The position numbers were made by a program, and so were the translations under genes. Positions 17,367-28,225 of a stretch of DNA of 64,000 bases are shown piece after piece (position 1 is the first letter of the stretch; each line of letters opens with the position of its first letter). The stretch lies in the NCBI RefSeq assembly GCF_027247405.1, contig NZ_CP097463.1, positions 2,108,001-2,172,000 on the forward strand, written 5' to 3'. The DNA comes from Jatrophihabitans cynanchi (GTDB taxonomy: Bacteria > Actinomycetota > Actinomycetes > Mycobacteriales > Jatrophihabitantaceae). A model generated the notes under the pieces. It was given only the letters and a program-made list of their open reading frames with translations. It ran no database searches and was not told where the DNA came from.

Positions 17367-18161
17367 ATGAGCCCGAGCACTCCGCGAGAATCGGCAGCCA
17401 CCGAGACCGCCGCCGCGCCCACCATCCAGACCGTGCAGCGCGCCGCGCTGGTGTTGGGCTCGTTCACGGTGAGCAAGCCGCACCTGAGCCTGAACGAGAT
17501 CACCAGCAGGCTGGGCGCGAGCAAGGCCACCGCGCACCGGTACACCAAGGCGCTGCGCGCGGCCAACCTGCTGCGCTACGACGAGCGCACCGCGCTGTAC
17601 TCGCTCGGCCCCCAGGTGCTCACGCTCGCCGCATCGGCCCGCGCCGGGCTGCCGATCGTCAACGTCGCCGAGCCGTACATGGACGAACTGCTCAAGCGGG
17701 TGGACGAGACGGTGGTGCTGAGCGTCTGGGACGGCGAGACCGCCACCGTGGTGCGCTCGGTGGACAACACCGACCACATCATCCGGATCGGCGTGCGCAC
17801 CGGCTCGCGGCTGGACCTGCTGAACTCCGCGCAGGGACGGGTGTTCTGCACCTACCTGCCGCGCGATCAGGTTCCCGGCCTGACCAAGCTGCTGCGCCGC
17901 TCGCCCGAGGTGGAGCACGAGTACGAGACGATCCGTGAGCACGGGCTGTCGCTGAACTCCCCGGACATCAACGGGGTCCGCAGCATCGCTGCCCCCATCT
18001 TCGAGGGCTCCTCGATCGTCGCCGCGATGGCGATCGTCGGGACCACCGTCAGCGTCTCGACGGACGTCGACTCGCCGATGGCGCAGGCCCTGCTGGAGAC
18101 GACGCGCGCCCTGTCCCGCCGGCTCGGCAACGCCGACGAGGGACTGGACAGCTCCGCCTGA
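17367..18161 (+). CDS. IclR-family transcriptional regulator
   Basis: 264 residues from ATG 17367, with GAGGA just upstream (ATG 17313 would add 18 residues but lacks a ribosome site). Winged helix: TIQTVQRAALVLGSF...LSLNEITSRLGASKATAHRYTKALRAANLL. The ligand domain contains VVRSVDNTDHIIRIGVRTGSRLDLLNSAQGRVFCTYLP and GVRSIAAPIFEGS, typical of IclR proteins controlling aromatic or acid catabolism. IclR dimers bind palindromes, so this is the best candidate for the five island operators. A half site CGAGACG lies at 17334-17340, just upstream. The end of the gene runs into a 16-bp tandem repeat. Confidence 0.9.
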   Translation: MSPSTPRESAATETAAAPTIQTVQRAALVLGSFTVSKPHLSLNEITSRLGASKATAHRYTKALRAANLLRYDERTALYSLGPQVLTLAASARAGLPIVNVAEPYMDELLKRVDETVVLSVWDGETATVVRSVDNTDHIIRIGVRTGSRLDLLNSAQGRVFCTYLPRDQVPGLTKLLRRSPEVEHEYETIREHGLSLNSPDINGVRSIAAPIFEGSSIVAAMAIVGTTVSVSTDVDSPMAQALLETTRALSRRLGNADEGLDSSA

Positions 18162-18289
18162 CCGTTCCTCCGCCTGACCGTTCCTCCGCCTGACCGTTCC
18201 TCCGCCTGACCGCTCCTCCGCCTGACCGCTCCTCCGCCTGACCGCTCCTCAGCCTGACCGTTCCTCAGCCTGACCGCTCCTCAGCCTGA
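18152..18289. repeat. 16-bp tandem repeat, about 8.6 copies, starting at the iclR stop
   Basis: Units of CTCCGCCTGACCGTTC with C/T and C/A variants run from 18152 to 18289. The first unit contains the last codons and TGA of iclR, and each later unit repeats that TGA. It is noncoding after the first unit. Confidence 0.9.
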
Positions 18290-18345
18290 TCAGACACGCG
18301 CGCCCGACTGTCCGGCGCCGCTGAACCACCTACGCCTGGACTCGA

Positions 18346-19197
18346 ACATCGGGCTCTGCATGCAATCGTGCGCGCAGACCCCGATGTCGCGCGGCACTGG
18401 GCCGTTCCCCGCACCGCGCACCCCCGGGTGCCCGCAGCACCGCGCGATGGGCCGCAGCACCGCGCGATGGGCCGCACCGCGCACCCCCGGGTGCCCGCAG
18501 CACCGCGCGATGGGCCGCAGCACCGCGCGATGGGCCGCACCGCGCACCCCCGGGTGCCCGCAGCACCGCGCGATGGGCCGCAGCACCTCGCGATGGGCCG
18601 CACCACCAACCCCCTGGGCTCGCACATCGGGCTCTGCATGCAATCGTGCACGCAGACCCCGATGTCGCGCGGCACTAGGCCGTTCCCCGCACCGCGCACC
18701 CCCGGGTGCCCGCAGCACCGCGCGATGGGCCGCAGCACCTCGCGATGGGCCGCACCACCAACCCCCTGGGCTCGCACATCGGGCTCTGCATGCAATCGTG
18801 CACGCAGACCCCGATGTCGCGCGGCACTAGGCCGTTCCCCGCACCGCGCACCCCCGGGTGCCCGCAGCACCGCGCGATGGGCCGCAAGCACAGCGCGATG
18901 GGCCGCACCACCAACCCCCTGGGCTCGCACATCGGGCTCTGCATGCAATGGTGCACGCAGACCCCGATGTCGCGCGGCACTAGGCCGTCCCCCGCACCGC
19001 GCACCCCCGGGTGCCCGCGGCACCGCGCGATGGGGCGCAGCACCGCGCGATGGGCCGCACCGCGCACCCCCGGGTGCCCGCAGCACCGCGCGATGGGCCG
19101 CAAGCACAGCGCGATGGGCCGCCCCACCAACCCCCTGGGCTCGCGCATCGGGCTCTGCATGCACTGGTGCGCGCAGACCCCGATGTGTCGGCGGCAC
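18346..19197. repeat. Nested tandem repeat array (63-bp units within about 153-bp units)
   Basis: Five copies of the anchor ACATCGGGCTCTGCATGCA begin at 18346, 18624, 18776, 18929 and 19145. The steps are 278, 152, 153 and 216 bases, which equal one 152-153-base unit plus two, none, none and one extra 63-base units. The 63-base unit contains CACCCCCGGGTGCCCGCAG and two copies of CACCGCGCGATGGGCCG. Long open frames on both strands are by-products of repeats without stop codons. I see no gene between iclR and the AAA ATPase. Confidence 0.9.
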
Positions 19198-19318
19198 TCG
19201 AAGACTTGAAGCGCTCGAACACCCGCCGTCCCGGCAGGAACCGAGGATGCTTCGCAGCCACGGGGCCAGCCGGCGCAGCCAGAGCCTGGCGATCAGATGC
19301 GGGTGCGCCGACGGCGAG

Positions 19319-21370
19319 TTAGCCGAGCAGGGCGTAGTAGCGGCCGAACTCGTGTTCCAGGCAGAGCCGGCCCATCTTGCGGTACTCGCGCTGCACGGCC
19401 GTGATCAGGTGCCCCATCGTCACCTCGGCACCGTCCTCAGCCGCCAAGTACGCGGCGGTCACCGACGCCGAACGGATCCCGCCGCCGGCCAGTTCGAACG
19501 ACGTTGCCAGGAACGGCAGGTCGACATCATCGGCCCGGCGCAGCGCGGGAGCGAGGCAGCGGTCCCACAGCGCCAGCCGGTGGTCGGCGTCCGGTACCGG
19601 GAAGTCGACCAGCACGTCCAGTCGCCGGGTGAACGCGTCGTCGATGTTCGCGCGCAGGTTGGTCGCGAGCAGCACCAGCCCGTCGAAGGACTCCATCCGC
19701 TGCAGCAGGTAGGCGCTCTCGACGTTCGCGTACCGGTCGTGCGCGTCGCGGACCTCCGAGCGCTTGCCGAACACCGCATCGGCCTCGTCGAACAGCAGCA
19801 CGCCGTTCACCCCCGCGGCCGCGGCGAAGATGCGCTCGAGATTCTTCTCGGTCTCGCCCACGTACTTGTCCACCACGGTCGCGAGATCGACGACGTACAG
19901 GTCCAGGCCCAGCGAACCGGCGACGACCTCGGCGGACATCGTCTTGCCGGTGCCCGAGTCACCGGCGAACAGCGCCGCCACGCCCATGCCGCGCCCGCCG
20001 CCCGGGCGCATCCGCCACTCGCCGAGCACCCGCTCCCGATGCCGCGCCCGCAACGCCACCTCCTGCAGTGCGGTCCTCGTCGCGGTGGGCAGGATCAGGT
20101 CGTCCCAGCCGACTGCGGGCTCGACCCGGCGCGCCAGCCGCTGCAGCGCCGAACCGTTCTCCGCGCGGGCGCCGGCCTGCAGGTGCCCCGCCGTGATCCG
20201 CCCGTCCGCACCCAGCCGCGACTGCACCGCCGCCGCCCGCGCTGCCCGCGCCACCTGCTCGGGCCGCAGCAGGAACTGCTCGGTGGCCGGGCCGGGATCA
20301 AGCTGCGCGTCCCGGCCCGGCGCCAGCGCGTCCAATGCCGCGCGCCACAACCGGGACCGCTCGGTCGGGGTGCTCGCGGGAACCTCGACCAGCAGCGGCT
20401 GGACCGCCGCCCAGGCCGGGTCCCACGGCACCTCCCCCACCAGCAGCAGCGGCCGCGCCGAGAGCGCCTCGACCAGTGGCGGGCTGAGTGCCTCCGCGAC
20501 GACGGACGCCACGATGAGCCCGGCGCCGCGCAGCCCGGCCTCGCGCGCCGCCGTCCTGGCCGTCGCCGGCGGGTCGGGTTCGGCGAGCAGCCGGGCCAAC
20601 TCGACGGCCAGCACACCGCGTCCGGCCGCGGTCAGGGCGCGCGCGGCGAGCACTCGGCCGGAACCGGTGGGCGGTTCGCGCAAGTACGCCAGGTCGACCC
20701 CGGCGCCCAGTGCCGCCGCCAACGGCCCGGCTTCGCCCCAGTCGACGTCCGGGACGTCGGCGAGCACGCCCGCCAGCATCGCGTCCGGGGCGTCGTCGCC
20801 GAGCAGGTGAGCGACCACGCGGTCCGGCACCCGCAGCGCCCGGCTCGGGAACGGCCGCTCCGGATCGTCCACCCGCAACAGGCCCTCGCGCACCAGCGGG
20901 CCACCGGCCAGCCGTGCGCGGGCCGCAGCTGAGCCGAGCGGTTCCCCGCACAGCGCAAGGGCGACACCGACCGACGGCCGCCGCCTGGTCACGTCATCGT
21001 TGAGGTACCCGAACAGCTGCTCGAACCTCGAGTCCAGGTCACCGGCCAGCGCGATCAGCAACAGGTCGACGTCCAGCGGGGTCAGCGCGAACGCGGCGGC
21101 GAGCTCCCGCAACCGCACCCGGGCACCGGCTGCCTGCGCGCTGTCGGCGCGCAGTTCGCACGCGGCGAGCGCGTCGTCCGGCCTGGTCAGCACCGGCGCG
21201 GACGCCGGCGCGAGCAGCCGGTCGACGGCATCCTCGCTGAGGTACAGCCCACGGAACGGGTCGTCCGGCTGCGGATCCTCGGCCCGCCGGGCGGCGACCA
21301 GTTCACGGATCCGCTGCTCGAGCAGGCGGACCCGGTCGAGCAGGTACTGCAGGCCGACGTCCTCGCTCAC
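19319..21370 (-). CDS. AAA+ ATPase of the contractile-injection-system type
   Basis: 683 residues from GTG 21370, which overlaps the DUF4255 stop (GTGA). The C-terminal AAA+ module has Walker A GDSGTGKT near residue 470, Walker B VLLFDEADAVFG, sensor LATNLRANIDDAFTRRLD and an arginine-finger region. The N-terminal 430 residues are a helical, Ala/Leu-rich extension beginning LQYLLDRVRLLEQRIRELV. ATPases of this layout (Pvc15/Afp15-like) sit next to DUF4255 genes in extracellular contractile injection systems, where they are thought to aid assembly or loading. No sheath or tube gene is in this window. A general chaperone ATPase is the alternative. Confidence 0.85.
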   Translation of the reverse strand: MSEDVGLQYLLDRVRLLEQRIRELVAARRAEDPQPDDPFRGLYLSEDAVDRLLAPASAPVLTRPDDALAACELRADSAQAAGARVRLRELAAAFALTPLDVDLLLIALAGDLDSRFEQLFGYLNDDVTRRRPSVGVALALCGEPLGSAAARARLAGGPLVREGLLRVDDPERPFPSRALRVPDRVVAHLLGDDAPDAMLAGVLADVPDVDWGEAGPLAAALGAGVDLAYLREPPTGSGRVLAARALTAAGRGVLAVELARLLAEPDPPATARTAAREAGLRGAGLIVASVVAEALSPPLVEALSARPLLLVGEVPWDPAWAAVQPLLVEVPASTPTERSRLWRAALDALAPGRDAQLDPGPATEQFLLRPEQVARAARAAAVQSRLGADGRITAGHLQAGARAENGSALQRLARRVEPAVGWDDLILPTATRTALQEVALRARHRERVLGEWRMRPGGGRGMGVAALFAGDSGTGKTMSAEVVAGSLGLDLYVVDLATVVDKYVGETEKNLERIFAAAAGVNGVLLFDEADAVFGKRSEVRDAHDRYANVESAYLLQRMESFDGLVLLATNLRANIDDAFTRRLDVLVDFPVPDADHRLALWDRCLAPALRRADDVDLPFLATSFELAGGGIRSASVTAAYLAAEDGAEVTMGHLITAVQREYRKMGRLCLEHEFGRYYALLG

Positions 21371-22083
21371 CCGCCGGCCCTCTTGCGCGCCCGCGCGCGG
21401 CGCCCGCCCGACGCCGTCGAGGTAGCCGACGTCGCGGCGCCGGACGATGCCGCCGCGGCCGGTTCGGGCGGCTGGTGCTGGTGCCGCCGCTCGTCTGTGC
21501 CGCCGTCGACCCGGTCGGCGAGCGTGACGTACAGGCCCTCGCGCACCGGCGGGCCGGCCGCCTCCTCGAGCCCGGCGGCCATCGGCACGATGACCACCAG
21601 GTCGATCGACGGCTTGAGCTCGCCGCCCAGGGCGGTCCACACGTCGGCGAACGCACGGTCCTCCGGCGGCGGCAGGCCGATGGTCAGCGGCGCGACCAGG
21701 CCGTTGTCGGTGAGCACGCCCGGCACGACGTGCGGCGGCAACGCGTCGTAGCGCAGCAGGCAGTTCAGCAGCGCGGCCAGCAGCCGGTGCTCGTCCTCGG
21801 GTCGTTGCGTCCACGCCGTCACCAGGTAGGACAGCTTGAAGTAACGCGGCGCGGGGATCCGGCCCAGGACCGCCCCGTCCGGTCCGAGCCGGTCCCGCAC
21901 GCCGACCTCGCGGCGGCGCAGGTCTTCGCGGATGTCGTACAGGTACAGGTTGACGGTCGGTGCGTTGCGCCGCGCGGCCCAGTCCTTGGTCGGCGCGTCC
22001 AGCACGACCTCGACGTCACTCGCCCCGTCCAGTGCCTCGGCGCGCACCAGCGTGCGCAGTGCCTCGTCGATCTGCGAGATCAC
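21367..22083 (-). CDS. DUF4255 (Pvc16-type tail terminator) protein
   Basis: 238 residues from GTG 22083. The N-terminal 185 residues match DUF4255: ISQIDEALRTLV, a strand ending in VNLYLYDIREDLRRRE, PRYFKLSYLVTAWTQRPEDEHRLLAALLNCLLRYDALP and a beta-rich end (GGELKPSIDLVVIVPM). In contractile injection systems and phage tails this fold caps the sheath/tube. The last 50 residues are a Ser/Ala/Arg-rich low-complexity tail. Coupled by a 4-base overlap to the AAA gene and by a 4-base gap to the secreted propeller gene, so the three form one operon. Confidence 0.85.
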   Translation of the reverse strand: MISQIDEALRTLVRAEALDGASDVEVVLDAPTKDWAARRNAPTVNLYLYDIREDLRRREVGVRDRLGPDGAVLGRIPAPRYFKLSYLVTAWTQRPEDEHRLLAALLNCLLRYDALPPHVVPGVLTDNGLVAPLTIGLPPPEDRAFADVWTALGGELKPSIDLVVIVPMAAGLEEAAGPPVREGLYVTLADRVDGGTDERRHQHQPPEPAAAASSGAATSATSTASGGRRARARKRAGG

Positions 22084-22087
22084 CGGC

Positions 22088-25000
22088 TCACCCCCGTCCC
22101 AGGAAGCGCGGCGGCGACTCGGTGCGCGGGACCACCAGCATCGTCCCCTTGACCTTGCTGAACAGGTGCGCCGGGCTGGACGCCACGATGTCGCGGGCCC
22201 CGAGCAGGTCACGGCGCACGATCAGCACCTGCACCCGCAGCGTGCCGTCGGCCGCAACGATGTACGGGCCGTCGAACGCGGTGATGCCGTCGGACCACCT
22301 CAGCAGGACGTGATCACCGGCGGGGAAGTCCTCGCCGAACGCGAGCGTGACGAAGCCGGGTGGCCCGATCGCGGGCAGCAACCGGATCGCCGGCTGCTTG
22401 ACCGGCAGCACCACCGAGCGCGAGTTGTTCGCCGGGATGGGATCGGGCACGGTCGAGGCGATCGTGGCCGTGAGCGTGCGCGAGTAGCCGTGCGCCGGGT
22501 TGCCGACGGGCGCCGGGTCGAGGGCGATCACGAAGCTCTGCTGCGCGCCGGGGGCGAGCGTGCCGACCGCGCACGGCGTACCGCCGGCAAGGCAGGCCGG
22601 CGCGGCGCTCGGGTGCAGCGCCGCCGGAACGGTCACCGTCAGCGTCGCCGCCGTCGCGGCCAGCGGGCCGTGGTTCACGATCTTGACGGTGGCGCTGAGC
22701 GCTCCGCCGACGAAGCCGACCGGACGGGACAGGTGGATGGTGACGCCCAGGTCGGCTGTACGGGCCCGTGGCGCAGGCGGCTGGACGGTCGGCTCGGTCT
22801 CCGGCTGCGGGCGCTGAGCGACGGTGCGCACCCCGCTGCCGTCCGGCCTGATCGCGTAGCCGCCGATGTTCGTGACCTGCCGGGCCGGTTCGCCGGCGAG
22901 GTAGAGCTGAGCGCCGTCTGCCGACCAGGTCGGGTCGTGGGCCGCCGCGATCGACGTGCGGCTCGGGGTCGGGACGGCCCGCTTGATCGGGACGAAGTTC
23001 AGTTCGTAGCCGGTGAGCGCGCTGACCTGCTGCGCGGGCACGGACGTCGGCGTGCCGGCGATCGAGGCGGGCAGCGTGATCGTGCGCAGCATGCCGCTGT
23101 CGTCGTAGGCGAGCCGGGCGCCGTCGGGCGACCACGCCGGGGAGCGGCCGTTGATCGCACACGGCGTCGTGGCCGAGCAGGCCGTGCCGCTCGATGTCGG
23201 GACCGTCGTGGTGATCGGGCCGCCCTGCCCGGTGGCCGCGTTCACGACCCACAGCTGCGGACGTGGGTAGCTGCGCCGGGTGACGTCGTCGCGCTGGGTG
23301 TCGTTGCGCAGCCAGCCGGTCTGGCTGATCGCGGTGCCCACCGGCGGGTCGGCCGCCACGAAGTCACCGGTCCCCCCCTCGCCGACCGAGATGGTCGTCG
23401 CCGCGCGGTTGTCCGCGAGGTCCGCGTCCGGCGAGGGCGCACCGACGCCGGCCTTGAGCTCGTACACGCCGAACGGGGCGTCGCCGCGTTCCACCGCCGA
23501 GAAGGTGACCTGCCTGCTGGCGAAGCCCGGCAATGGCCCGAGCACGCAGCGCAACCTGGTGGCCGCGGTAGGCACCGGCAGGCTCGTGCACGAGACGCCG
23601 GCAGGCAGCCCGCCCGCGGTGACCAGGAACATCGCGTTGTCGGCGTCGCCGGTGCTGCCGACCGTGATCGTCAGCGTCGCGTTCGCCGACTCCACGGCGG
23701 TGCCGTTGCGGACCGTCGCGACGAACACGCCGGTGGCGCCCGCGACGGGTGCCAGGGTGAGCCGCAGGTCGGGCACCGGGGTGGAGCGGACGAGCGCGAG
23801 GTGCGTGCCGTCCGGTGACCAGGACGGGTCCAGGTCCTGGACCTGGGCGGTCGGCTGGACACTGTGCGGCGTGACCTGCACGGGGATGGACGGGGTCGCG
23901 TCCGCAGGCACGTCCGCGATCATCACCGCAGCGGACTGGACGTCATTGCGCAGGGCGAACCGGGTGAACGCGATGCGGGTGCCGTCAGGCGACCAGGCCG
24001 GCTCGGTGTCGTACTCGACACCGTCGGCATCCTGGCTCGCGAGTTGCCGCGGCGTGCCGGTGCCGTCCGCGTCGGCGATCATGATGACGCGCCGGTCAGG
24101 CGACTCGCTCTGCGGGTCGCCCGGGACGAGCTGGCTGTAGGCGAGCCGGGTTCCGTCGGGCGAGTAGGCCGGCTGCGACTCGTCCGGGTCCGCGGACAGG
24201 AACGGCTGCCGCCCGGCGCCGTCCGCCGCGACAGCGGTGGAGATGCCCGCGGACCCGCTGCGCGCGGTGATGTAGACGCCGGCGTGCTCGCCGTCGGAGT
24301 TGTTGCCGGTCACGATGGCCGGCTGCGACTCGGCCGCGCCGGGCGTGTTCGCGACGTCGACCGGGGCACCGATCGCGATCAGCCCACCGTCCTGGGTGAG
24401 CTGCTGCAGCAGGACGTCGCCGTACGGATCGGCGCCCGTCGCGGTGTACGCGAGCGACGGCGCGCAGTTCTCGCTGCCGATGCACAGGTCGCCGAAGGCC
24501 GGCTGCGCGCCCTGCGGCGGCGCGTCGCCGTACAGCGAGCTGACCTCCCGCTGCGCAGCGGGCACCGAGGCGACGTCCGCCGGCGGCAGCACCAACCAGC
24601 CGAGCGAGCCGTCCGGACGGAACCGGGTGGTGGTCAGTGCCAGGTAGACGCGCGCATCGTCCAGGCCGGACGGGTCGTTGAGCGCGACCGGCTCGGTGTT
24701 CGCGACGCCGGCCGCGCCGAACGTGCGCCGCGACGGGCCGGCATCGACGCCGGCGACGGGTTGGAGGTTGCCGTCGCGGCACACGTCGACGCACTGCTGG
24801 TAGATGTCACCGAGCGGGTTGTCCCGGGTGCTGCTGTACACCAGCTCGTTGCCGACGCTCGCGGAGTTGGCGGCCAGCGCCTGCGTGCCGACCCAGTTCG
24901 GCCAGAGATTGTCGCCGCGCTGGTGCGCGAGCGGAACGCGCGAGGTGACCAGCGGCGAGCAGCCGGCCGGGCTCGTCGGCGCCGCGCGCACCGACACGGT

Positions 25001-25636
25001 GGCCACCCAGATGTTGACGTGGCCGTCGTTGCCCGCGCCGCCGGCGGTGCTCGCGTACGCGACCTGGACCGTGCGGCCCGAGCCCGTGCCGATGACGGCC
25101 GAGGCGACCGGGTGCGACTCGGTCGCGGCGTCGCAGGTGACCCGGATCGGCTGGGCGCCGAAGGCCGAGCTGCTCAGGAACACGTCCGGTACGCCGCCGG
25201 CCCTGGTGCTGACGAACACGGTGACCAGCGGCACCCCGGTGTCCGTCTCGCTCACCGCGAGCTCGCCCTCGTGCGCGGCGGTCGCGCTCGCGAACCCGGG
25301 CGCGGCGTCCGCGAAGAAGGAGCCGTCGGCCGGGGTGAACCGCGCGATGTGGTCGGTGTCATCGGTGAACGCGACCCGCGCCCGGGTGGTGGGGGTCGGG
25401 GTCAGCCCGGTGAGTGGCGCGGCGAGCGGCGACATGAGCCGCGAGGCGAGCTGCACCGCGGGCGACGACGCGGGCGACGCGGCCGACGCGGGCGACGCGG
25501 CCGACGCGGGCGACGCGGCCGACGCGGTGACGGGCGCCGCGGGCGACGTGACGGCGCGCGCCGTCACCGCGAACTGCGCGCACGCCAGCACGACGGCGGC
25601 ACCGGCCAGCCGGAGCCCGATCCAGCGAGATCGCAC
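22088..25636 (-). CDS. Large secreted TolB-like beta-propeller/CARDB-type repeat protein
   Basis: 1182 residues from GTG, with AAGGGGA six bases upstream. A signal peptide (RWIGLRLAGAAVVLACAQFAVTARA) is followed by a Pro/Ala/Ser linker with ASPASA repeats (residues about 35-57). TolB-type propeller blades with the motif PAWSPDGTRIAF recur (SQPAYSPDGTRLAYS, DPSWSPDGTHLALV, SPAWSPDGARLAYD, DPTWSADGAQLYLA). Between and after them are DUF11/CARDB-like Ig domains (ATLTITV, ADLGVTIHLSRPVGFVGG, PANNSRSV). Several paired cysteines fit an extracellular protein. In an operon with DUF4255 and AAA genes it may be a surface or particle-associated component. No enzyme motif is seen. Confidence 0.75.
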   Translation of the reverse strand: MRSRWIGLRLAGAAVVLACAQFAVTARAVTSPAAPVTASAASPASAASPASAASPASSPAVQLASRLMSPLAAPLTGLTPTPTTRARVAFTDDTDHIARFTPADGSFFADAAPGFASATAAHEGELAVSETDTGVPLVTVFVSTRAGGVPDVFLSSSAFGAQPIRVTCDAATESHPVASAVIGTGSGRTVQVAYASTAGGAGNDGHVNIWVATVSVRAAPTSPAGCSPLVTSRVPLAHQRGDNLWPNWVGTQALAANSASVGNELVYSSTRDNPLGDIYQQCVDVCRDGNLQPVAGVDAGPSRRTFGAAGVANTEPVALNDPSGLDDARVYLALTTTRFRPDGSLGWLVLPPADVASVPAAQREVSSLYGDAPPQGAQPAFGDLCIGSENCAPSLAYTATGADPYGDVLLQQLTQDGGLIAIGAPVDVANTPGAAESQPAIVTGNNSDGEHAGVYITARSGSAGISTAVAADGAGRQPFLSADPDESQPAYSPDGTRLAYSQLVPGDPQSESPDRRVIMIADADGTGTPRQLASQDADGVEYDTEPAWSPDGTRIAFTRFALRNDVQSAAVMIADVPADATPSIPVQVTPHSVQPTAQVQDLDPSWSPDGTHLALVRSTPVPDLRLTLAPVAGATGVFVATVRNGTAVESANATLTITVGSTGDADNAMFLVTAGGLPAGVSCTSLPVPTAATRLRCVLGPLPGFASRQVTFSAVERGDAPFGVYELKAGVGAPSPDADLADNRAATTISVGEGGTGDFVAADPPVGTAISQTGWLRNDTQRDDVTRRSYPRPQLWVVNAATGQGGPITTTVPTSSGTACSATTPCAINGRSPAWSPDGARLAYDDSGMLRTITLPASIAGTPTSVPAQQVSALTGYELNFVPIKRAVPTPSRTSIAAAHDPTWSADGAQLYLAGEPARQVTNIGGYAIRPDGSGVRTVAQRPQPETEPTVQPPAPRARTADLGVTIHLSRPVGFVGGALSATVKIVNHGPLAATAATLTVTVPAALHPSAAPACLAGGTPCAVGTLAPGAQQSFVIALDPAPVGNPAHGYSRTLTATIASTVPDPIPANNSRSVVLPVKQPAIRLLPAIGPPGFVTLAFGEDFPAGDHVLLRWSDGITAFDGPYIVAADGTLRVQVLIVRRDLLGARDIVASSPAHLFSKVKGTMLVVPRTESPPRFLGRG

Positions 25637-25781
25637 GTCGTCCCCTTCGTGAGGTTGAGCGGCACTGGGCGCGCACGTCCACGCTCGTGCAGCGGCCGGC
25701 AGCGGCGCAGCCGGGGATGGGCAGTCGTTGGTGCCGGCGGCACCGCCTGTTCGGGCACGGCACGACCGGACGTCCGTTCGA

Positions 25782-26405
25782 TCAGATGAGCCCCTCGCGC
25801 AGCGCGTACGCGACCGCGTGGCAGCGATTGCGCAGCTGCAGCCGGCTGCTCACGTCATGCAGCACCGTCTTCACCGTGCGTTCGGAGTAGCCCAGCTTCG
25901 AGGAGATCTCGGCGGTGTCGAAGCCGTCGGCGACCAGGCGCAGCACCTCGACCTCGCGCGCAGCGAGGCCGCTGAAGGTCAGCCCACGGGGCACCAGCAC
26001 CTGGCGCTGCAGGCTGCCGACCTGGCTGAGCAGCCGACCCAGCAGGTCGGACGGCACGCTGCCCTCGCCGCTGGCCGCGCGGCTGATCACGTGCACCATC
26101 CGCTCCGGGGTCGCCTCGCAGCGGCGCACCAGGCCGATCACGCCCGCTTCCACCGCCGCGATCAGCCCGGCGTCGTCCAGGGTGCTGGCCACCAGCACCG
26201 CGCGGGACGGGCCCTGCCGCTGGACGGCACGCAGCAGCCGCACCGCGTCGTCGTCGACTGCGTCCACGACGATCAGGGCGACCCGGGCGTCGGCGATCTC
26301 GTCCGCGCGGACGACCCGCACCTCCGGGCGCGGCCGCAGCGCACTCGCCACGCCCGCCTCCGAGATCGGATCCCGCGCGTGGATGTAGACCGGTACTCGC
26401 TCCAT
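25782..26405 (-). CDS. LuxR/NarL-type transcriptional regulator with a degenerate receiver-like domain
   Basis: 207 residues from ATG 26405, with GGAGAGG eight bases upstream. The C-terminus is a complete LuxR helix-turn-helix (LTFSGLAAREVEVLRLVADGFDTAEISSKLGYSERTVKTVLHDVSSRLQLRNRCHAVAYALREGLI). The N-terminal 130 residues have receiver-like strands (VALIVVDAVDDDAVRLL, SRAVLVASTL, GVIGLVRR) but I cannot identify a conserved acidic triad, and no kinase is nearby. It lies between the propeller operon and the divergent Ig-membrane gene and probably regulates both. Confidence 0.82.
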   Translation of the reverse strand: MERVPVYIHARDPISEAGVASALRPRPEVRVVRADEIADARVALIVVDAVDDDAVRLLRAVQRQGPSRAVLVASTLDDAGLIAAVEAGVIGLVRRCEATPERMVHVISRAASGEGSVPSDLLGRLLSQVGSLQRQVLVPRGLTFSGLAAREVEVLRLVADGFDTAEISSKLGYSERTVKTVLHDVSSRLQLRNRCHAVAYALREGLI

Positions 26406-26490
26406 GTGCACACCTCTCCGCCCGTTCGGGCTGAACTCGCTCACGTCGCGTCCGAAGCAGACGGCGGTCTTGCTCGAAGGACGGCCCGGG

Positions 26491-26518
26491 TGCCCGAATT
26501 GATACGTCCCTTCGGGCA
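26491..26518. promoter_or_regulatory. Inverted repeat TGCCCGAA-N12-TTCGGGCA in the LuxR/Ig-protein divergent region
   Basis: Perfect 8-bp arms in the 265-base region between the divergent LuxR gene and the gene at 26671. A partial copy (CCCGTTCGGGC) lies near 26417. It is a plausible LuxR-type operator. No further gene is seen in this region. Confidence 0.4.
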
Positions 26519-26670
26519 TCGGATCGCCCCCACCGTCGCGTGCCGAGGGGCGCAGAATGGACCGGCGTCCTCTTCGTGCAGTCAACGTGGACTCAACGGG
26601 CAGCCGAAGTGCCTTTCTGCCCACCCTCGAGTTCGTCCCACGGGCGCCTGGTGTCCCTACCTTCACAACC

Positions 26671-27951
26671 ATGAGCACAACTGCGACCCTCGAGTCGCCC
26701 CAAGTCCGCCTGGATGCAGGCAGCGAGGCCGTCGTCCCGCTGCACATCCGCAACAACGGCACGATCGTCGAGGGCTACCGGTTCGAGATCGTCGGTGCGC
26801 CGGCGGACTGGACGATCGTCGAGCCGCGGGAGGTCTCGCTGTTCCCGGGCGACTCGACCACGGCCACGGTCAGCTTCCGGCCGCCGCGCTCGGCCGCGAT
26901 CCCGGCGGGCACGCTGCCGTTCGGCGTCCGGGTCGTCCCGACCGAGCACCCCCGCGACACCGTCGTGCCCGAGGGCGTCGTCGAGGTACTGCCGTTCCTG
27001 GAGACGACCGCCGAACTGGTGCCGCGGACCTCGCACGGGCGGCACGGCGCCAAGCACCAGGTGGCGGTCGACAACAGGGGCAACGTCCCGGTGTCCGTGC
27101 TGTTCAGCGCGGCCGATCAGGGCAATCAGCTCGAGCTGGCGTGCACTCCGGAGTCGATGACGGTCAACCCGGGCAACGCCGCGTTCTCGGACGTGCGGGT
27201 GAAGCCGGCCAAGCGCATGTGGCGGGGCCAGCCGATCACGCACCCGTTCGCGGTGACGGTCGTGCCGCACGCCGGGCAGCCGGTCACGCTCGAGGGCGCC
27301 CACGTGCAGGACCCGGTGCTGCCGAAGTGGCTGCTCAAGGCACTGCTGCTGCTGCTCGCGCTGTTGCTGCTGCTCGCCGCGCTGTGGTTCCTCGTGCTCA
27401 AGCCGACGATCAAGTCCGCCGCGAAGGACGCCGTCAAGGACCCGCTGGCCAAGGCGTCCAGCCAGGCGGCCGCTGCCCAGAAGCAGGCTGCCGCGGCGCA
27501 GCAGCAGGCAGCGGCAGCGCAGTCGGCGGCTGGTTCGGGCGGGCCGGTCGCGCCGGTCAGTACCGCGCGGCCGGCCGGCCCGAAGGTGATCACCGCTGCG
27601 TTCAGTGACCGGCTGCACGTCCTGACCAACGCAGGCGCCACGAACTCGACCGGCGTGACCGTCCCGTCCAAGACCACGCTGCAGCTGACGGACCTGGTGT
27701 TCGAGAACCCGCAGGGAGACTTCGGCACCGTCACGATCACCCAGGCCGGCAACACGCTGCTGTCGATGGCGCTGGAGAACTTCCGCGACACCGACTACCA
27801 CTTCGTCTCGCCGATCGTGGTGAAGGCCGGTGACGCGGTGGTCGTCAGGGTCACGTGCAACACGGTCGGCAAGCCGCCGGACGCCCCGCCGCCGACCCAG
27901 TGCGACACCGCAGTGTTCGTGGGCGGCACCACCAGCAAGCCGGCGAGCTGA
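26671..27951 (+). CDS. Membrane-anchored Ig-like (COG1470-type) protein
   Basis: 426 residues from ATG 26671 (an earlier in-frame ATG at 26557 reads unlike protein). Residues 1-215 form two Ig-like domains (VRLDAGSEAVVPLHIRNNGTIVEGYRFEIVGAP; VPRTSHGRHGAKHQVAVDNRGNVPVSVLFSA). A single strongly hydrophobic helix (about 218-242, KWLLKALLLLLALLLLLAALWFLVL) follows, then a helical KQAAAAQQQAAAAQ stretch and a C-terminal beta-rich domain. There is no signal peptide, so the Ig domains are probably cytoplasmic and the C-terminal domain outside. Similar proteins occur in actinobacterial injection-system loci, as far as I recall. A TACCTT box seven bases before the ATG allows a leaderless transcript. 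Confidence 0.7.
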   Translation: MSTTATLESPQVRLDAGSEAVVPLHIRNNGTIVEGYRFEIVGAPADWTIVEPREVSLFPGDSTTATVSFRPPRSAAIPAGTLPFGVRVVPTEHPRDTVVPEGVVEVLPFLETTAELVPRTSHGRHGAKHQVAVDNRGNVPVSVLFSAADQGNQLELACTPESMTVNPGNAAFSDVRVKPAKRMWRGQPITHPFAVTVVPHAGQPVTLEGAHVQDPVLPKWLLKALLLLLALLLLLAALWFLVLKPTIKSAAKDAVKDPLAKASSQAAAAQKQAAAAQQQAAAAQSAAGSGGPVAPVSTARPAGPKVITAAFSDRLHVLTNAGATNSTGVTVPSKTTLQLTDLVFENPQGDFGTVTITQAGNTLLSMALENFRDTDYHFVSPIVVKAGDAVVVRVTCNTVGKPPDAPPPTQCDTAVFVGGTTSKPAS

Positions 27952-28027
27952 GCGGCATTCGCGCGCGCGGCGGCGCTCCCCCCACGCGCTGACCACTGTT
28001 CGCGCCGCTTCCCCCACGCAGTTACCG

Positions 28028-28120
28028 ACATACGCGCGCTTCCCCCACCCGGTTACCGACATACGCGCGCTTCCCCCACCCGGTTACCGACATACGCGCG
28101 CTTCCCCCACCCGGTTACAG
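28028..28120. repeat. Three 31-bp tandem repeats
   Basis: Units beginning ACATACGCGCGCTTCCCCCA start at 28028, 28059 and 28090, and a diverged half unit precedes them. They lie in the 468-base stretch between the Ig-membrane gene and fkbp, which contains only repeats and a duplicated gene end. Confidence 0.9.
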
Positions 28121-28157
28121 AATTCCAAGCCGAAATCTCGTCAGCCGGTGGGGGAAG
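28101..28157. repeat. Palindromic element, copy 1 (intergenic)
   Basis: CTTCCCCCACCCGG (28101-28114) and CCGGTGGGGGAAG (28145-28157) pair with a single bulge around a core containing GCCGAAATCTCGTCAG. The same core and arms recur at 28256-28315 and, in another form, inside a methyltransferase gene at 35014-35120. Confidence 0.75.
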
Positions 28158-28176
28158 CCGGCGCGGGGCGGGCAAC

Positions 28177-28225
28177 CGGTGGGGGGAGCGGGACGGGGCT
28201 ATTTGACGCCGAGTAGGTCGACCAC
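28177..28225 (-). pseudogene. Duplicated 3' end of the fkbp gene
   Basis: About 49 bases here match 28399-28446 with roughly five differences. On the minus strand they still read V-D-L-L-G-V-K-stop, the last residues of the FKBP protein encoded 220 bases away. It is a copied gene end without the rest of the gene. Confidence 0.8.

What the first reader, a model, noticed from the sequence alone, without database searches (positions are those of the whole stretch)
19319..27951. Orphan injection-system module: AAA ATPase, DUF4255, secreted propeller and Ig-membrane protein without sheath or tube
An operon couples a Pvc15-like AAA ATPase and a DUF4255 tail-terminator-like protein by GTGA overlap, preceded by a 1182-residue secreted propeller protein, next to a LuxR regulator and an Ig-like membrane protein. 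These are accessory parts known from extracellular contractile injection systems, yet no sheath, tube, spike or baseplate gene lies between the repeat array at 18.3 kb and the housekeeping genes at 28.4 kb. Either the structural genes are elsewhere or the proteins form a different secretion or assembly device.
Basis: partly seen in the sequence, partly recalled or inferred. Interest (0 to 1): 0.75.

Follow-up and report, generated by a model that had tools for sequence, protein, structure and literature searches.

The report
Split half of contractile injection cluster
The five genes are not an orphan device: they are one half of an ordinary bacterial contractile injection system whose sheath, tube and baseplate genes lie about 50 kb away on the same chromosome, and tracing that link turned up a short repeated DNA signal that may switch on this class of machine.

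Summary
In detail: propeller, Pvc16_N/DUF4255 cap and AAA genes (GTGA overlap), a LuxR gene and an Ig-like membrane protein, with no structural gene in the interval. The 'orphan' reading does not. The same 4.5-Mb chromosome carries, about 29-44 kb left of the window, a body with sheath, two tubes, hub, PAAR, gp25, baseplate J, tail protein and a CisA-like protein, with no cap or AAA gene detected. In a sister genome the AAA and first body genes adjoin; here about 48 kb of mostly metabolic genes separate them, and both halves sit at one site that is nearly empty in a relative. All 59 well-flanked AAA loci examined have a sheath on the same contig, and 62 of 62 sheaths compared are nearer to this body than to the chromosome's second CIS. 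So this is the detached head of a split, S. coelicolor-type CIS. Asking how the halves could stay coupled, I found a palindrome, CTGCCC-N4-GGGCAG, often in tandem 22 bp apart, the top-ranked palindrome upstream of CIS genes in 80 related loci: 30 of 39 exact sites in 6.8% of the DNA. I infer it is the operator of the SCO4263/SlpR-type LuxR regulator. Binding is untested, and the box is weak in this head's own promoter.

The parts
19319..21370 (-). AAA+ ATPase (winged helix + AAA) of the CIS head, in the role of SCO4259
   Evidence: Pfam AAA 8.6e-22, PF22977 2.7e-32; Walker A GDSGTGKT at residue 470, Walker B at 524; 73% identical to the G001 homologue
21367..22083 (-). Tail terminator / cap protein (Pvc16_N, DUF4255)
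   Evidence: Pfam 2.8e-42; matches a chain of PDB 9gts, the S. coelicolor CIS cap, 2.5e-57 over residues 1-217; GTGA overlap with AAA
22088..25636 (-). Fast-evolving TolB-like propeller with DUF11/Ig-like tail, probably exported
   Evidence: PD40, DUF11; TolB structures by sequence and, from a low-confidence model, by fold; 43% identical to the G001 homologue
25782..26405 (-). LuxR/NarL-type regulator in the position of SCO4263/SlpR
   Evidence: GerE 5.3e-13; 87% identical to G001, dN/dS 0.14; a homologue on the same contig in 59 of 59 well-flanked loci (48 within 10 kb; 11 further away)
26418..26433 (.). Palindrome CCGCCCGTTCGGGCTG in the divergent LuxR/Ig promoter: weak copy of the CIS box (2 mismatches)
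26671..27951 (+). Membrane protein: two Ig-like domains, one transmembrane helix, C-terminal beta-sandwich
   Evidence: hydropathy; model with mean pLDDT 83; Cep192/central-apparatus-type Ig folds among the best fold hits
18152..19198 (.). Repeat array at the junction of the AAA gene and the intervening DNA
   Evidence: tandem repeats of period 16, 63 and 152; last copy to 19198 and short matches on both strands elsewhere in the genome
1..18151 (.). Right-hand part of the about 48-kb stretch separating head and body (C1:2079364-2127319)
   Evidence: 19 of 20 proteins scanned in the stretch have metabolic, transport or regulatory Pfam hits; only scattered matches, the longest about 1.4 kb, in 7 family genomes

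Best explanation
The module is the head (regulator, envelope proteins, cap and AAA ATPase) of a contractile injection system of the S. coelicolor type. It is separated from its body (core-domain protein, sheath, tubes, hub, spike, baseplate, CisA-like membrane protein) by about 48 kb of other genes lying between the AAA gene and the eCIS-core gene. Shown: both halves, their families, their matching lineage, and contiguity in relatives. Inferred: the 48 kb was inserted into a once contiguous cluster; the particle still assembles, its cap coming from the head locus and the rest from the body locus; the head's LuxR activator reaches the body in trans through CTGCCC-N4-GGGCAG operators, so splitting need not break co-expression; by analogy with S. 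coelicolor, the AAA protein is dispensable for particle formation but needed for function.
For: Second sheath at C1:2075164-2076681(-). Body families: sheath, two gp19 tubes, CIS_tube+LysM, hub, PAAR, gp25, Baseplate_J, Tail_P2_I, eCIS_core; Zn-ribbon + transmembrane + C-terminal-domain protein in the CisA position. G001 keeps FKBP-Ig-LuxR-propeller-cap-AAA-593aa-core on one contig; the 593-aa and core homologues lie beside the G000 sheath. In 62 of 62 loci the sheath near a head-type AAA is nearer to body 2 (57-81%) than to CIS 1 (43-54%), two of the 62 being fragments under 180 residues; the G001 sheath is 89.9% versus 49.9%. Sheath in 52 of 59 well-flanked loci within about 10 kb and in the other 7 on the same contig, by matching contig length. 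The genes flanking the two halves are 4.0 kb apart in G003, which has no DUF4255 or sheath hit. Solved S. coelicolor homologues of sheath and cap. CIS box statistics.
Against: No expression or particle data. The separation (50.6 kb from AAA to sheath) is about twice the largest among the 59 loci (25.8 kb), so the head could be on its way to loss. In this genome the head promoter has only a 2-mismatch box, 21 bp from the LuxR start; the propeller promoter has no box better than 3 mismatches; 2-mismatch sites are common by chance (28 versus 18 for the reversed pattern in 124 kb). The 12-bp core of the box also has one copy in the other CIS, at C1:613267. That the AAA gene is dispensable for particles comes from S. 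coelicolor (PMC10020575, passages), not from here. Only one genome of this genus was available, so the event cannot be dated, and its mechanism is unknown.
Confidence: 0.85

Rival explanations
1. The head is a decaying remnant: the body was cut off and the split system no longer works.
For: Longest head-body separation of those examined; the propeller has diverged strongly (43% identity, dN/dS 0.78); weak box in the head promoter.
Against: The five head genes, sheath and one tube gene have no internal stop and align with G001; AAA, cap, LuxR, Ig, sheath and tube show dN/dS 0.14-0.44, though most of that divergence may predate the split.
Confidence: 0.12
2. The head serves the second, complete CIS of the same chromosome (C1:589.6-617.5 kb).
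For: Same cell, same protein families; one copy of the 12-bp box core lies inside that cluster, at C1:613267.
Against: That system has its own cap and AAA genes; 62 of 62 sheaths next to head-type AAA genes are of the other type; no box within one mismatch in that cluster or in 9 stretches of that type from 6 genomes, 175 kb.
Confidence: 0.03
3. The module is a stand-alone secretion or assembly device without sheath or tube.
For: No structural gene seen inside the interval.
Against: 59 of 59 well-flanked loci have a sheath on the contig; the body at 2064-2079 kb lacks just these parts.
Confidence: 0.02
4. The CTGCCC-N4-GGGCAG element is a transcription-terminator or RNA hairpin, not a protein-binding operator.
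For: It folds into a stable 6-bp hairpin (about -10 kcal/mol); 19 of the 21 sites found within 250 bp after AAA lie within 48 bp of its stop codon; T is slightly enriched after the sites (1.69 versus 1.16 expected in 8 nt).
Against: The stem sequence itself is conserved: seven other hexamer palindromes with the same spacer have 0-1 exact copies and none in promoter masks. Distance to the downstream start clusters (cap: 75-77 or 96-101 bp in 16 of 18; sheath: 100-114 bp in 15 of 31), while distance to the upstream gene end ranges from 2 to over 4000 bp. Only 4 of 49 sites are followed by 4 or more T in 8 nt. Tandem copies keep a 22-bp period.
Confidence: 0.15

Closest known systems
S. coelicolor / S. 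lividans contractile injection system (CIS-Sc, SLP; class IId eCIS)
   Same: Sheath 2.6e-217 and cap 2.5e-57 to chains of the solved S. coelicolor structures; AAA plus Pvc16_N; LuxR-type regulator; two tube genes; CisA-like protein after the baseplate genes; eCIS_core protein near the sheath.
   Different: Head and body are split by about 48 kb; a propeller and an Ig-domain membrane protein accompany the head; a second, different CIS is present on the chromosome.
PVC / Afp extracellular injection systems
   Same: Shared core families (Pvc16_N, AAA, sheath, gp25, baseplate J).
   Different: Cap and sheath are far less similar (Pvc16 9e-4, Pvc2 2e-51).
Second CIS of this chromosome (C1:589.6-617.5 kb)
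   Same: eCIS_core, AAA, cap, sheath, tube, gp25, baseplate J.
   Different: Sheath 50% identical, three very large Ig-rich proteins, cap and AAA of another subfamily, no box within one mismatch.

Membership tests
S. coelicolor-type (class IId) CIS | Sheath, tube, hub, spike and baseplate genes | tested here: met
   found outside the window at C1:2065.5-2076.7 kb
S. coelicolor-type (class IId) CIS | AAA+ ATPase and Pvc16_N terminator (said to be invariable in eCIS regions, PMC10020575, passage) | tested here: met
   both in the window, not beside the body
S. coelicolor-type (class IId) CIS | Sheath and cap closest to S. coelicolor CIS among solved structures | tested here: met
   no tree was built, and the class label comes from the papers
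S. coelicolor-type (class IId) CIS | CisA-like membrane protein after the baseplate genes | tested here: inconclusive
   position, Zn ribbons, one transmembrane segment and C-terminal domain agree; homology to CisA itself was not tested
S. coelicolor-type (class IId) CIS | SCO4263/SlpR-type LuxR regulator | tested here: inconclusive
   LuxR domain and conserved position; the SCO4263 sequence was not compared
S. coelicolor-type (class IId) CIS | All genes in one locus (usual for the family rather than required) | tested here: not met
   about 48-kb gap between AAA and the core gene
S. coelicolor-type (class IId) CIS | Contractile particle made in the cytoplasm | not testable with these tools
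   needs microscopy
Stand-alone AAA/DUF4255 device | Module conserved without structural genes | tested here: not met
   sheath on the same contig in 59 of 59 well-flanked loci

The most novel reading that the evidence does not exclude
Actinobacterial CIS clusters are wired by an operator that I did not find described, CTGCCC-N4-GGGCAG in tandem at 22-bp period, bound by the SCO4263/SlpR-type LuxR activator. This makes cap, core, sheath and propeller operons a regulon in trans, so that a CIS can be split across distant sites and still be built as one machine; this genome is such a split CIS.
Probability: 0.5. Interest if true: 0.5.

Novelty: new member of a known kind. Interest (0 to 1): 0.36.

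Why it matters
It corrects an apparent novel device to a known one and shows that a CIS cluster can be broken by a large stretch of other genes. Linkage-based surveys could miss or divide such systems: PMC8213781 groups genes within 12,000 bp and asks for at least four members (passages). The conserved box is a concrete, easily tested candidate for the binding site of the activator of Streptomyces-type CIS, which is known genetically to be required for sheath transcription (PMC2000904, passages). None of the papers listed by my searches (with 15 of 1,129 listed, 117, 126) showed a described site; only open-licence papers could be searched, and Additional file 11 of PMC2000904, which lists ten motifs upstream of bldA-dependent genes, was not read, so the box could be among them.

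Tried and rejected
Stand-alone device: rejected because each of the 59 well-flanked loci has a sheath on the same contig. Partnership with CIS 1: rejected by sheath type. tRNA or repeat-mediated integration of the 48 kb: no tRNA in the five loci scanned, no repeat shared by the two junctions (A against B), no clear GC contrast; the mechanism stays unknown. LuxR within 10 kb as a predictor of the box: it did not track (9 of 11 loci without a nearby LuxR hit have a box, 30 of 48 with one do). LuxR homologues were then found 17-23 kb from AAA on the same contigs in all 11; those genomes have 1-13 such hits each, and the one near AAA is the best in 8 of 11. LuxR's own promoter rarely has a box (3 of 58). 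27 of 80 loci have no box within one mismatch in the tested promoters. The box was first noticed post hoc by comparing three promoters of this genome, then tested on the 80 loci, one of which (L089) has the length of the G001 contig. One search reported no core palindrome around CIS 1 but scanned that region on one strand only; one search shows one there, at C1:613267. Synteny of the 48 kb was tested for 2088.0-2126.1 kb only, not for 2079.4-2088.0. The AlphaFold model of the propeller is poor overall (mean pLDDT 68), so its integrin-like fold hits carry little weight.
Full report
WHAT IS THERE. The window is C1:2108001-2172000 of a single-contig 4.5-Mb genome. One contig of a same-family genome (G001:C451) has the same length, 12,545 bases, as a Jatrophihabitans MAG contig (L089), so the family is probably that of Jatrophihabitans (inference). 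The head operon reads propeller (22088-25636), Pvc16_N cap (21367-22083), AAA (19319-21370), all on the minus strand with a GTGA overlap between the last two. LuxR (25782-26405, minus) and the Ig membrane protein (26671-27951, plus) are divergent.

THE BODY IS OUTSIDE THE WINDOW. A sheath search of 81 genomes found two sheaths in this chromosome: C1:615853-617430 and C1:2075164-2076681. The second belongs to a block at 2064.3-2079.4 kb with Tail_P2_I, Baseplate_J, gp25, PAAR, hub (GPD and base_V), CIS_tube with LysM, two gp19 tubes, sheath and eCIS_core, plus a 398-aa protein with zinc ribbons, one transmembrane segment and a C-terminal domain where CisA lies in S. coelicolor. No cap gene is there: the only two Pvc16_N hits of the genome are the window gene and the one in CIS 1. 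No AAA relative was seen among the ORFs of that block.

HEAD AND BODY BELONG TOGETHER. (a) In G001 the order FKBP, Ig, LuxR, propeller, cap, AAA, 593-aa protein, eCIS_core is contiguous; the homologues of the last two (47% and 70% identical) sit beside the G000 sheath. (b) In 62 of 62 loci with both genes, the sheath near a head-type AAA is nearer to the body-2 sheath (57-81%) than to the CIS-1 sheath (43-54%), two of them being short fragments; the G001 sheath is 89.9% and 49.9%. (d) Both halves sit at one site: a reductase gene that I read as GGR by eye, left of the body, and FKBP, right of the head, are 4.0 kb apart in G003, which has no cap or sheath hit, and 75.8 kb apart here. Position at one site argues against a translocation and against a simple assembly error.

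THE INTERVENING DNA. About 48.0 kb (C1:2079364-2127319) separates eCIS_core from AAA. Of 20 proteins scanned there, 19 have Pfam hits: amidohydrolase, FAA hydrolase, aldo/keto reductase, malate synthase, ABC permeases, PucR regulators, CoA transferase, ring-hydroxylating dioxygenase and similar. The part tested, 2088.0-2126.1 kb, shows only scattered matches in 7 family genomes. A repeat array (18152-19198) marks its AAA-side end. That it was inserted into a once contiguous cluster follows from the order in relatives; how it arrived is unknown.

MECHANISM. The solved S. coelicolor cap is a Cis16 hexamer (PMC12237407, passages); the window cap matches it over 217 residues at 2.5e-57. In S. coelicolor the AAA gene is not needed for particles of normal appearance but is needed for the cell-death phenotype (PMC10020575, passages). 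The LuxR gene SCO4263 is required for sheath transcription, which starts 32 bp before the start codon (PMC2000904, passages), and its own promoter depends on sigma-E (PMC6767563, passages). SlpR deletion abolishes particles in S. lividans (PMC8505568, passages). The same roles are inferred here. For the Ig protein the model gives two Ig-like domains before one transmembrane helix and a beta-sandwich after it; with no N-terminal hydrophobic segment in the scan, an inside-to-outside topology like CisA is plausible but untested. The propeller is the fastest-evolving part (43% identity to G001 against 71-90% for the six others compared), which would fit a surface-exposed specificity or protection role; this is a guess.

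THE CIS BOX. Comparing the LuxR/Ig, sheath and eCIS_core promoters of this genome showed one shared palindrome, GCCCGWTCGGGC, which occurs at 15 distinct places in the whole genome: 20 strand rows against 4 for the reversed pattern. Three of the 15 are these promoters; one other lies inside CIS 1, at 613267. Tested on the 80 loci, CTGCCC-N4-GGGCAG is the top-ranked of all hexamer palindromes with spacers 0-12. Exact copies: 39, of which 30 lie in promoter masks that make up 6.8% of the DNA, in 24 loci of 12 genus-or-higher labels. Up to one mismatch: 127, of which 86 in masks, in 53 of 80 loci. Other spacers N0-N8 give 0-1 exact copies, and seven control palindromes 0-1 with none in masks. Tandem copies at 22 bp are the most frequent offset: 21 and 9 of 82 anchors, no other offset above 5. 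The box centre lies 75-77 or 96-101 bp before the cap start in 16 of 18 cases, and 100-114 bp before the sheath start in 15 of 31, the other 16 lying at 0-33 or 122-172 bp. If the transcription start is where it is in S. coelicolor, the main sheath position is near -70, a usual activator position (inference). In this genome the sheath promoter has a box (1 mismatch, centre 105 bp before the start) and the eCIS_core promoter a tandem box (1 and 2 mismatches); the head promoter has a 2-mismatch copy only. In G001 the propeller, eCIS_core and sheath promoters have copies with 1, 0 and 1 mismatches. Of six further head loci outside the 80 (L036, L038, L039, L040, L041, L044), five have at least one copy within one mismatch and L039 has none; their positions were not mapped systematically. 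Nine stretches of the CIS-1 type from six genomes (175 kb) have none. LuxR homologues lie on the AAA contig in 59 of 59 well-flanked loci: 48 within 10 kb and 11 at 17-23 kb.

CAVEATS. The box was found post hoc. The 80 loci are related and are the best of 568. Binder and function are inferred; a terminator reading is not excluded for sites just after AAA. In this genome the genome-wide count of one-mismatch boxes is only modestly above the reversed control (42 against 29 places). Class IId is a label taken from papers; no tree was built.

VERDICT. Known kind of machine, split arrangement, with a testable regulatory element as a by-product.

Noticed in passing
C1:589.6-617.5 kb, outside the window (L003-L005, L070): A second CIS of another type on the same chromosome: eCIS_core, AAA, cap, three very large Ig-rich proteins, then baseplate to sheath. 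The core-AAA-cap-Ig block recurs in relatives (L046, L047, L048, L053, L054).
   Followed up: partly
window 18152-19198: Composite repeat array (periods 16, 63, 152). A short element of it, matching on both strands, recurs at other places of the genome, including just after the GGR-like gene at C1:2060.8-2061.1 kb.
   Followed up: partly
C1:2088025-2089591 (L058:25-1591), outside the window: Multi-copy gene with an HNH-like C-terminus (by eye) inside the intervening DNA; 92-93% identical copies or pieces at C1:3710892, 2910803 and 1655551. Reminds me of the 13E12/DUF222 repeat family (recalled, not tested).
   Followed up: no
window 27970-28192: Dispersed repeats between the Ig gene and FKBP, with many 69-85% copies elsewhere in this genome.
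   Followed up: no
C1:2076.9-2078.6 kb, outside the window (L069:14811-16613): 558-aa protein with no Pfam hit between sheath and eCIS_core, conserved in G001 (47% identity); by position it may be a CIS cargo like the Sle1-type proteins of PMC13277306 (passages).
   Followed up: no
G010:C1:3823-3843 kb (L043): Another CIS type (sheath 35% identical to the CIS-1 sheath) lies between the GGR-like gene and the conserved block right of FKBP in another family genome, so this region may be a hotspot for CIS islands.
   Followed up: partly
window 22088-25636: The propeller gene diverges far faster than its neighbours (43% identity, dN/dS 0.78 against 0.14-0.44 for the six others compared).
   Followed up: partly
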